From an uncultured Roseibacillus sp. (GTDB taxonomy: Bacteria > Verrucomicrobiota > Verrucomicrobiia > Verrucomicrobiales > Akkermansiaceae), in the NCBI GenBank assembly GCA_937949965.1, contig CALFBF010000108.1, positions 1-35,683 of the forward strand: a DNA stretch of 35,683 nt, in the 5' to 3' direction. The notes below the pieces were generated by a model. The model was not told the DNA's origin and did no database searches. It saw only the letters and a list, made by a program, of their open reading frames with translations. Shown piece after piece: positions 17,366 to 27,655 of the stretch (the first letter of the stretch is position 1; each line of letters starts with the position of its first letter). A program made the position numbers and the translations under genes.

Positions 17366-17908
17366 CTATCGGCCGGTAGCAGGAACCTTACTCAGAAGTT
17401 CTTTCACTTGCTTCTGATAAAGATCACCATTGCCCCCATGATAGGGTCCCGCCATGTGATTATGGCGCAGTTTCCCTGTGTGATCGAAGATCAAGTAATA
17501 AGGAACATACTTCACCGGAGCACCAGGGAAATGGGTGTGATACATCACCGAGGTATTTTGCAGCTCTTTTGTCCAACCTTGCCTTTGCAACGCCGCCAGT
17601 GCGCCCTCTCGCGAGCCATGTTGGCAGTAGGAAGCGATCATGTGGAAAGGTTTGCCCTCGAGAGACTTGGCCAAACTGACCATGCCTGGGGTGAGTTGTC
17701 GGCAACCCACTCATCCTCCCCAGATCACGAGGAGGGTGACTTTTCCCTTCAGATCAACAGGTGCTTTCACTTCTGGTCCTGCCCAATGAAGCCCCCACTC
17801 AATGCCTTTAGCAGAGCCTTCGACTTTCGTATTATCCTGCCGACCCGCATGTAGCGGCAGCGTGAGAAGAAGGGAGTAGAGCAGGGAACGAAGCATCATA
17901 ATATTCAT
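17366..17908 (-). CDS. Exported thioredoxin-fold protein, candidate selenoprotein (in-frame TGA at UxxC)
   Basis: The ORF track splits this gene at TGA 17713-17711 into 65-aa and 114-aa pieces, but they lie in the same frame with nothing between them, so the full product is 180 aa. It has a signal peptide (MMLRSLLYSLLLTLPLHAG), a KGKVTLLVIW strand leading to GG-U-VGC-RQLTPGM, and a VPYYLIFDHTGKL segment that looks like the cis-Pro loop of thioredoxin folds. The TGA is residue 66 and Cys69 completes a U-x-x-C redox pair. Coding similarity to a thioredoxin/TlpA-like fold continues well past the TGA, unlike a true stop. The expected role is thiol-disulfide or peroxide chemistry outside the cytoplasm. 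The alternative is a nonsense mutation of a Cys codon. Confidence 0.78.
17663..17687 (-). promoter_or_regulatory. Candidate bacterial SECIS hairpin of the thioredoxin-like gene
   Basis: In the mRNA, AGGC-A-UGGUC pairs with GGCCA-A-GUCU (nine pairs around one A-A mismatch) and closes a loop AGUUU. The loop begins 34 nt after the UGA, inside the 16-37 nt range described for bacterial SECIS elements, and has a G within its first two bases as the bSECIS model asks. The pairing includes two G-U wobbles. Function requires SelB binding, which cannot be judged here. Confidence 0.5.
17691..17710 (-). other. Perfect 8-bp hairpin directly after the in-frame UGA
   Basis: GUGGGUUG and CAACUCAC pair (one G-U) around the loop CCGA, starting with the first base after the UGA. 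It is too close to the UGA to be a standard bSECIS, but it could stack beneath the one at +24 to +48 or slow the ribosome at the recoding site. Confidence 0.45.
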
Positions 17909-26752: not shown

Positions 26753-27655
26753 ATGAAATTTACCTCATTGCTTGCCGCTATTTTCTTTCTCCCATTTTCC
26801 GCCTTTGGATGAGACGGCTGAAAACTCATCGCACCGCCAGTTGGCGGTGCTACTATTTCCCACGGCTCGGATTTTAGCCTTTCGGTCAATTATCAGTTTC
26901 GCAGAAACGACGATATTTTCAGGGGAGATTCTCGCGTGGCGAATGCTTCGGACTTTGCTGCGGAGCTCAATATTGTCGCGCTCTCTGGGAGTTACCGCTT
27001 GAATCGTCATTGGTCTTTTTCGGTCTTCGTTCCTTTTGTGGACGGAGTGACCGAAGAGCAAGGTCAGGCAGACATTAGAATCAATGGACTGGGTGATGTT
27101 TCGGTCTCCGCAATTTATTCTCCCTGGTCAGGCGAGGACTCTTGGTTGGCGGGGTTGGGCTTCAATGCCGGACTGATTCTTCCTACCGGAGAGTCCAGTG
27201 ATGATCCGAATGTGGGGGTAGTGAACCCCCATGTTTTTCAGCTCGGAACAGGGGCAACTCAGTTGACTTTGGGCGCGAGTTACTTTGGTCAAGTTGATGA
27301 GGATTGGTCTTACTTCACCAGTGTCGGAGTTTCCTTGCCGCTTCACGAAGGGAGGGATGATTTTCTTCCTGCAGAGACTTTCTCTTGGCAGCTAGGAACG
27401 AGTAGAAAGCTCACCGAGAATCTGAGTGCCAAGTTGACTCTGAGCCTCTTCCATGGCGAGAGAGATGAGTTCTTGGATCAAGAGATTGGAAACACTGGTT
27501 CGACCACTTTAAGCCTTGCTCCAGCCTTGAGCTATGCCCTCACCGATAAGCTCACTACTTCGCTATCGGTGACCATTCCGGTGTATCGCCGAGCTAATGA
27601 AACGGCCCTCGTCGTCGGCCCTCTGTGGTCAGCGGGAATGAACTACCGATTCTAG
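26753..27655 (+). CDS. Outer-membrane beta-barrel protein, candidate selenoprotein with UxxU after the signal peptide
   Basis: The ORF track starts at GTG 26936, but the same frame continues upstream through TGA 26819 and TGA 26810 to ATG 26753, where a signal peptide begins (MKFTSLLAAIFFLPFSAFG). The product would be 300 aa with residues 20 and 23 encoded by TGA: FSAFG-U-DG-U-KLIAPP. The body has alternating beta strands (FSLSVNYQF, WSFSVFVPF, LTLGASYFG) and a final Phe (AGMNYRF), as expected of outer-membrane barrels of the MetA/phenol-degradation transporter-like group. Without the upstream part the protein would have no export signal. The motif would be a redox or metal pair at the mature N-terminus. 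The alternative is a double nonsense mutation. Confidence 0.72.
26810..26821 (+). other. Two in-frame UGA codons (U-D-G-U)
   Basis: UGA at 26810-26812 and 26819-26821 with GAC GGC between. Coding in the same frame is clear on both sides: signal peptide upstream, barrel downstream. Cys at both places would give CDGC. Confidence 0.65.
26831..26850 (+). promoter_or_regulatory. Candidate bacterial SECIS hairpin of the beta-barrel gene
   Basis: GCACCGCC and GGCGGUGC form a perfect eight-pair stem closing the loop AGUU. The loop begins 17 nt after the second UGA and 26 nt after the first, so one hairpin fits the 16-37 nt window for both. The second loop base is G, as the bSECIS model asks. A dispersed intergenic hairpin repeat is the alternative explanation. 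Confidence 0.55.

What the first reader, a model, noticed from the sequence alone, without database searches (positions are those of the whole stretch)
17663..17687. Same AGUU loop in the SECIS candidate of the thioredoxin-like gene
The hairpin starting 24 nt after the UGA at 17711 has the loop AGUUU at +34, and the beta-barrel hairpin has AGUU. The two genes are unrelated and the surrounding stems differ, so a shared loop is what one would expect of a common SelB recognition signal. The stem here has an A-A mismatch and two wobbles.
Basis: partly seen in the sequence, partly recalled or inferred. Interest (0 to 1): 0.75.

Follow-up and report, generated by a model that had tools for sequence, protein, structure and literature searches.

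The report
Ordinary selenocysteine hairpin in thioredoxin gene
A hidden thioredoxin-like gene in a Verrucomicrobia genome reads a UGA stop codon as selenocysteine with the help of a small RNA hairpin, and the loop it shares with a neighbouring selenoprotein gene is a variant of the well-known bacterial signal rather than a new one.

Summary
The hairpin at 17687-17663 (minus strand) is real. It lies after an in-frame UGA (17713-17711) in a signal-peptide-bearing thioredoxin-fold gene (17908-17366) with active site U-V-G-C. Eleven distinct homologues, down to 46% identity, all carry UGA at that position. They keep the core UGGUC-(R)GU(Y)-UGGCCA intact even at synonymous codon positions, the strongest synonymous conservation among the codon windows tested. 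The genome has SelA, SelB with its mRNA-binding winged helix, and tRNA-Sec (UCA). SelB is present in 17 of 17 relatives with UGA-bearing homologues and in 0 of 9 relatives whose homologues lack UGA. Two corrections apply. First, the common signal is not AGUU: SelD, FdhA, peroxiredoxin and other thioredoxin selenoproteins of relatives use AGUU, GGUC, AGUCU, GGUCU, GGUUC and so on, i.e. R-G-U-Y. Four homologues of this very gene have GGUCU, the loop of E. coli fdhF. This is the published bacterial SECIS consensus. Second, the lower stem with the A-A mismatch is not conserved (43% paired); only the upper six base pairs are. What is new is a Sec-only thioredoxin subfamily with no NCBIfam or Pfam model. 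The SECIS itself is ordinary.

The parts
17366..17908 (-). Selenoprotein gene: exported thioredoxin-fold (ResA/TlpA/DipZ-like) protein, 180 aa with UGA read as Sec; start ATG 17908 (or 17899/17896), stop TAG. Standard gene callers see only the 114-aa ORF 17366-17710.
   Evidence: Translation with TGA=U; 11 homologues all with UGA; AlphaFold2 pLDDT 86, best PDB matches DipZ C-terminal domain and ResA; profile match to YkuV
17711..17713 (-). In-frame UGA codon for selenocysteine, first position of the U-V-G-C redox motif (partner Cys codon at 17704-17702)
   Evidence: Invariant TGA in 11 of 11 distinct homologues; aligns with the first Cys of CxxC of thioredoxins
17668..17682 (-). Conserved SECIS core: UGGUC-A-GUU-U-GGCCA; six pairs 17682-17677 with 17673-17668 around triloop GUU 17676-17674 (or 5-nt loop AGUUU)
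   Evidence: All six pairs kept in 11 of 11 homologues, closing pair A-U 7 / G-U 4; no synonymous change at Val, Ser/Gly and Ala codons, top-scoring synonymous conservation in the gene
17663..17687 (-).
   Evidence: MFE -10.0 kcal/mol; the lower stem is only 43% paired across homologues, so not part of the conserved element
26753..27655 (+). Comparison gene: outer-membrane beta-barrel-like selenoprotein with two UGAs (26810-26812 and 26819-26821, motif U-D-G-U) just after the signal peptide
   Evidence: Two UGAs conserved in its close homologues L031-L042
26834..26847 (+). SECIS hairpin of the beta-barrel gene CCGCC-AGUU-GGCGG, 26 nt after the first and 17 nt after the second UGA
   Evidence: Loop AGUU in 11 of 11 distinct homologues, one compensatory pair G-C to A-U

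Best explanation
The hairpin is a canonical-type bacterial SECIS element. It directs SelB to insert selenocysteine at UGA 17713-17711 of an exported thioredoxin-fold thiol-disulfide oxidoreductase with the active site U-V-G-C. The part SelB reads is the short upper stem with the loop R-G-U-Y; here the loop is A-G-U-U-U, in sister genes G-G-U-C-U. The gene shares this loop with the beta-barrel selenoprotein in the same window because the same SelB of the genome decodes both. Shown here: the conserved UGA, the RNA-level conservation of stem and loop, the presence of SelA, SelB and tRNA-Sec, and the co-occurrence with SelB. Inferred: actual SelB binding, Sec insertion, and the disulfide-exchange role in the periplasm.
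For: In-frame UGA in a UxxC motif of a protein with a confidently predicted thioredoxin fold. All 11 distinct homologues from Akkermansiaceae/Verrucomicrobiales genomes keep the UGA. Synonymous sites of the core (GTC-RGT-YTG-GCC) are frozen while other codons vary. 100% pairing of the upper stem. The own genome has SelB with the SelB-wing_3 domain, SelA at 460 bits and tRNA-Sec with anticodon UCA. SelB is present in 17 of 17 genomes with UGA-bearing homologues and 0 of 9 with homologues lacking UGA. SelD of 13 relatives, including three of the same genus, is itself UGA-bearing; in 12 of them its R-GU-Y hairpins align and show strong covariation. FdhA of three relatives has GGCC-GGUCU-GGCC or a close variant. 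The loop, spacing (33-34 nt) and energy of the window hairpin fit the published bSECIS model (PMC13188914).
Against: selD is not found in the 90.6%-complete assembly of this genome. The core stem of this family never varies apart from A-U/G-U at the loop, so there is no compensatory change in it to prove pairing. The minimal hairpin of most homologues is only about -4 to -7 kcal/mol, weaker than the -7.5 cut-off of the published model. There is no protein or selenium-incorporation data.
Confidence: 0.93

Rival explanations
1. AGUU is a lineage-specific SelB recognition signal, distinct from the E. coli GGUCU type.
For: AGUU occurs in both window genes, in 11 of 11 beta-barrel homologues, 7 of 11 homologues of this gene, and several UxxC thioredoxins and peroxiredoxins of relatives.
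Against: SelD, FdhA and TlpA-like selenoproteins of the same clade use AGUCU, GGUCU, GGUUC, GGUCC and GGUC. Four orthologues of this gene use GGUCU. Only GU is invariant across the families.
Confidence: 0.04
2. The gene is a pseudogene or the UGA is a sequencing error, and the hairpin is chance.
For: The assembly is fragmented (166 contigs, probably a MAG), and the frame is interrupted by only one codon.
Against: 11 of 11 distinct homologues from independent assemblies carry the same UGA, and the downstream frame is conserved for over 100 codons. Hairpins of this quality follow random UGAs in 0.2-2% of cases.
Confidence: 0.01
3. UGA is simply reassigned to a sense codon in this genome.
For: Two genes of the window contain in-frame UGA.
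Against: Seven of 25 window genes end in UGA. tRNA-Sec, SelA and SelB are present.
Confidence: 0.01
4. The nucleotide conservation of the hairpin is only a by-product of protein conservation (PGMVSLAK).
For: The encoded residues V-S/G-L-A are conserved.
Against: Val is GTC 11 of 11, Ala is GCC 11 of 11, Ser/Gly are AGT or GGT 11 of 11, although in the window's genes these codons hold only 31%, 32%, 16% and 27% of their families. Distant Cys homologues in SelB-less genomes have no RGUY loop at this place.
Confidence: 0.01

Closest known systems
Bacterial SECIS (bSECIS) consensus model, as given in PMC13188914
   Different: Most homologues have a shorter stem, weaker than -7.5 kcal/mol when only the conserved core is counted
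SECIS of E. coli fdhF and of FdhA in relatives of the window genome
   Same: Loop GGUCU; four homologues of the window gene have UGGUC-GGUCU-GGCCA, nearly the same as the relatives' FdhA hairpin GGCC-GGUCU-GGCC
   Different: Loop sits 18 nt after UGA in fdhF/FdhA and 33 nt in this gene; the window copy has AGUUU; no bulged U equivalent to U17 is predicted here (the U at that place, 17682, is paired with A17668)
Thioredoxin-fold selenoproteins with UxxC (Trx, TlpA-like, redoxin-like entries of the selenoproteome inventory in PMC13188914)
   Same: Sec at the first position of the CxxC redox motif of a thioredoxin fold; signal peptide suggests export
   Different: Own subfamily: below every Pfam and NCBIfam cut-off, motif WGGU(V/I)GC or WG(S/G)UPGC, conserved HxHMAGPxHGG tail in most members, and no close Cys-containing homologue found

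Membership tests
bacterial SECIS (bSECIS) | Hairpin directly downstream of an in-frame UGA, loop 16-37 nt after it | tested here: met
   UGA 17713-17711; loop begins 33-34 nt after it in all homologues
[quoted passage not shown]
   AGUUU (or triloop GUU closed by A-U) in the window; GGUCU in four homologues
bacterial SECIS (bSECIS) | Upper stem of 4-16 bp | tested here: met
   Six conserved pairs, 10 in the window copy
bacterial SECIS (bSECIS) | Energy at or below -7.5 kcal/mol | tested here: met
   -10.0 in the window; -8.4 in L012; the other homologues -4.0 to -6.9 when only the nearest hairpin is counted
bacterial SECIS (bSECIS) | Bound by SelB and needed for Sec insertion | not testable with these tools
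   SelB with its mRNA-binding winged-helix domain is in the genome, but binding was not measured
selenoprotein gene | In-frame UGA conserved among homologues | tested here: met
   11 of 11 distinct homologues
selenoprotein gene | Homologues of the family with Cys at the Sec position | tested here: met
   Only distant ones (about 30% identity; L015, L016, L019, L022), all in genomes lacking SelB; close relatives all have UGA
selenoprotein gene | Sec machinery SelA, SelB, SelC, SelD in the genome | tested here: inconclusive
   SelA, SelB and tRNA-Sec found; selD not in this incomplete assembly but in all 13 relatives tested
thioredoxin fold, ResA/TlpA-like | Fold with the redox motif at the N-terminus of the first long helix | tested here: met
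   AlphaFold2 pLDDT 86.2, U66 just before helix 67-82; DipZ and ResA matches at E about 3e-8 to 6e-8
known NCBIfam or Pfam selenoprotein family | Score above the curated cut-off | tested here: not met
   Best NCBIfam hit 22.1 bits against a cut-off of 230; best Pfam Redoxin 14.8 against 26.6

The most novel reading that the evidence does not exclude
SelB of this Verrucomicrobia lineage reads a minimal signal, any short stem carrying R-GU-Y and without the bulged U that E. coli needs, tolerant of spacing from 17 to 34 nt. That would let one hairpin decode two UGAs nine nucleotides apart in the beta-barrel gene and could explain a broad selenoproteome of exported proteins.
Probability: 0.3. Interest if true: 0.55.

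Novelty: new member of a known kind. Interest (0 to 1): 0.35.

Why it matters
It adds a thioredoxin selenoprotein subfamily, apparently always with Sec and likely to be truncated by gene callers, to a group (Akkermansiaceae-type Verrucomicrobia) for which I found no paper in the held library describing a selenoproteome. It also gives a set of natural SECIS variants from one clade (thioredoxin, SelD, FdhA, peroxiredoxin, beta-barrel) in which only GU in the loop is invariant. That is a clean test bed for what SelB actually reads. The loop observation itself confirms established knowledge rather than changing it.

Tried and rejected
AGUU as a lineage-specific signal: rejected, since other families and orthologues use GGUC/GGUCU/AGUCU. 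Lower stem as part of the element: rejected, 43% paired across homologues. Code reassignment: rejected, UGA is used as stop. Whole-genome scan for SECIS with a covariance model (R1, 17 positions): too little information. On the window it ranks the thioredoxin hairpin first (a training sequence) and the beta-barrel hairpin third. On the own genome it gave two hits, neither with an in-frame UGA in reach, and its first filter even lost the window hairpin, so it says nothing about how many selenoproteins the genome has. FdhA of the own genome: three related oxidoreductase matches without UGA, so no test within the same genome; FdhA and SelD were tested in relatives instead. Rfam at gathering scores finds no SECIS in the window. 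U/C coupling of loop positions 1 and 4 (AGUUU/GGUCU) in this family was considered as pairing but is not seen in SelD, so it was dropped.

Full report
What was checked. On the minus strand, UGA 17713-17711 lies in frame in a reading frame from ATG 17908 to TAG 17366. The beta-barrel gene used for comparison is at 26753-27655 (+) with two UGAs (motif U-D-G-U) and the hairpin CCGCC-AGUU-GGCGG.

More than chance. Of 1262 UGA triplets in the window, 23 are followed by a bSECIS-like hairpin at or below -7.5 kcal/mol, and only three have an AGUU loop: the thioredoxin UGA and the two UGAs of the beta-barrel gene. Synonymous redrawing of the codons after the UGA reaches the observed energy in 0.63% of draws and a GUY/RGUY loop at or below -7.5 in 0.25%. 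So the hairpin alone is suggestive. The comparative evidence decides.

The gene is a real selenoprotein gene. Homologues were found in genomes of the same family, and in named records labelled Akkermansiaceae bacterium, Roseibacillus sp. and uncultured Verrucomicrobiales. Eleven distinct sequences, the ten others 46-75% identical to the window protein, all carry UGA at the same codon. More distant thioredoxin-like relatives carry UGA in a UGPC motif or Cys. The own genome encodes SelB with the SelB-wing_3 domain, SelA and tRNA-Sec with anticodon UCA. It lacks selD in the present assembly, which is 90.6% complete, whereas all 13 relatives tested have it, itself with an in-frame UGA. SelB is present in 17 of 17 genomes with UGA-bearing homologues of the two window genes or their UGPC relatives, and in 0 of 9 genomes with homologues that lack UGA. 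The genomes are related, so a simple probability would overstate the independence. UGA ends 7 of 25 genes of the window, so it is not reassigned.

The RNA element. In the 11 homologues the six upper pairs UGGUC(R)/(U)GGCCA are kept in every sequence, and the closing pair is A-U in seven and G-U in four. The codons are GTC 11 of 11, AGT or GGT 11 of 11, TTG or CTG, and GCC 11 of 11. The mean synonymous identity of all eligible codons is 0.46, and windows over the hairpin are the top ones of 72. The four pairs beyond the A-A mismatch are kept in only 43% of cells, as in shuffles. The element is therefore a short hairpin with a GUY loop, and the lower stem of the window copy is probably incidental. 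There is no compensatory change in this stem, so its pairing rests on conservation. The same architecture in SelD of 12 relatives shows nine cells with changes on both sides and a covariation score above all 500 shuffles, including the pair that closes the GUY triloop (G-C 5, A-U 4, G-U 3).

Is AGUU the signal? Own-genome FdhA-like genes have no UGA and selD is not in the assembly, so the test was made in relatives. SelD has AGUCU, GGUCU, GGUUC, GGUCC and AGUUU, with AGUCU, GGUCU and AGUUU in the three genomes of the same genus. FdhA has GGCC-GGUCU-GGCC or a close variant at spacing 18. UxxC thioredoxins have CCAC-AGUU(G/A)-GUGG, peroxiredoxin-like proteins GUCAGC-AGUUG-GCUGAC, and TlpA-like proteins CGAGC-GGUC-GCUCG. 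Four orthologues of the window gene have GGUCU. In a cross-family alignment only G and U are invariant. The consensus is R-G-U-Y. E. coli fdhF, read here from NC_000913.3, has the loop GGUCU at spacing 18. A review reports that U17, G23 and U24 are the sites of the E. coli element that are not free to vary, and that U17 and G23 are the SelB contact sites (PMC8659212). The general bacterial model in the 2026 inventory is a loop N1-G-(G or U)-N-N2 with N1 and N2 paired, spacing 16-37 nt, stem 4-16 bp, energy at or below -7.5 (PMC13188914). The window hairpin meets all of these. So the shared loop is what SelB recognition predicts, and it is not a new signal.

What the protein is. A profile of the family finds YkuV, DipZ and other thioredoxin-like oxidoreductases in the PDB at E 9e-6 and weaker. 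AlphaFold2 gives pLDDT 86 and pTM 0.80, and Foldseek finds DipZ and ResA at E about 3e-8 to 6e-8. Sec is just before the first long helix, the place of the nucleophilic Cys. With a signal peptide (inferred from the sequence, a hydrophobic stretch ending LPLHAG) it is most likely a periplasmic thiol-disulfide oxidoreductase using a selenol. It falls below every Pfam and NCBIfam cut-off, and no close Cys homologue was found in 289 genomes of the order and 260 of the family. It is a new subfamily of a known kind.

Limits. No experiment was available. The number of selenoproteins in the own genome is unknown. Draft assemblies contain errors, but the same UGA in many assemblies makes an error very unlikely. 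The family name is inferred from the named relatives, not given for the window.

Noticed in passing
window 26753-27655 (+), UGAs at 26810-26812 and 26819-26821: Beta-barrel selenoprotein with U-D-G-U right after the signal peptide; two UGAs nine nucleotides apart are followed by a single conserved hairpin (17 and 26 nt away) in 11 of 11 distinct homologues, so one SECIS may serve two UGAs. Only distantly like MtrB/PioB and the known GSU2204 selenoprotein family (far below cut-off).
   Followed up: partly
L103-L120 (relatives G001, G002, G003, G231, G258, G275, G282): Many further UxxC, UPFC and UPPC thioredoxin and peroxiredoxin genes with in-frame UGA and R-GU-Y hairpins: the group has a broad selenoproteome.
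   Followed up: partly
L142-L144, FdhA of G258, G282, G041: Formate dehydrogenase alpha subunits with UGA and GGUCU hairpins at spacing 18, like E. coli fdhF; the window's own genome has only UGA-free relatives of this enzyme.
   Followed up: yes
window 17682 and the same column of alignment A2: A U stands six nucleotides before the loop G, the place of the bulged U17 of E. coli, in 11 of 11 thioredoxin homologues (paired in the prediction) and in FdhA, but not as a rule in SelD or in the beta-barrel hairpins.
   Followed up: partly
L013, L014, L017, L018: Some members of the wider thioredoxin family carry an extra C-terminal SHD1-like domain (GWTN...FRMRNG...YPLEKLS); the name is from memory, not searched.
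   Followed up: no
L131, L136, L137 (G412): One relative has three copies of the thioredoxin selenoprotein gene, two of them about 3.5 kb apart on one contig.
   Followed up: no
G000:C15:7264-7527 (in L121): A second beta-barrel gene copy in the own genome lies at a contig end and matches only the C-terminal part, so its N-terminus and any UGA are not seen.
   Followed up: no
L130, end of the thioredoxin reading frame: The reading frame ends in SLIHISEPTRP, which looks like translated sequencing adapter at a contig end.
   Followed up: no
window 17366-17908, C-terminal part: HxHMAGPxHGG-type motif after the thioredoxin core, conserved in most members, possibly metal-binding.
   Followed up: no
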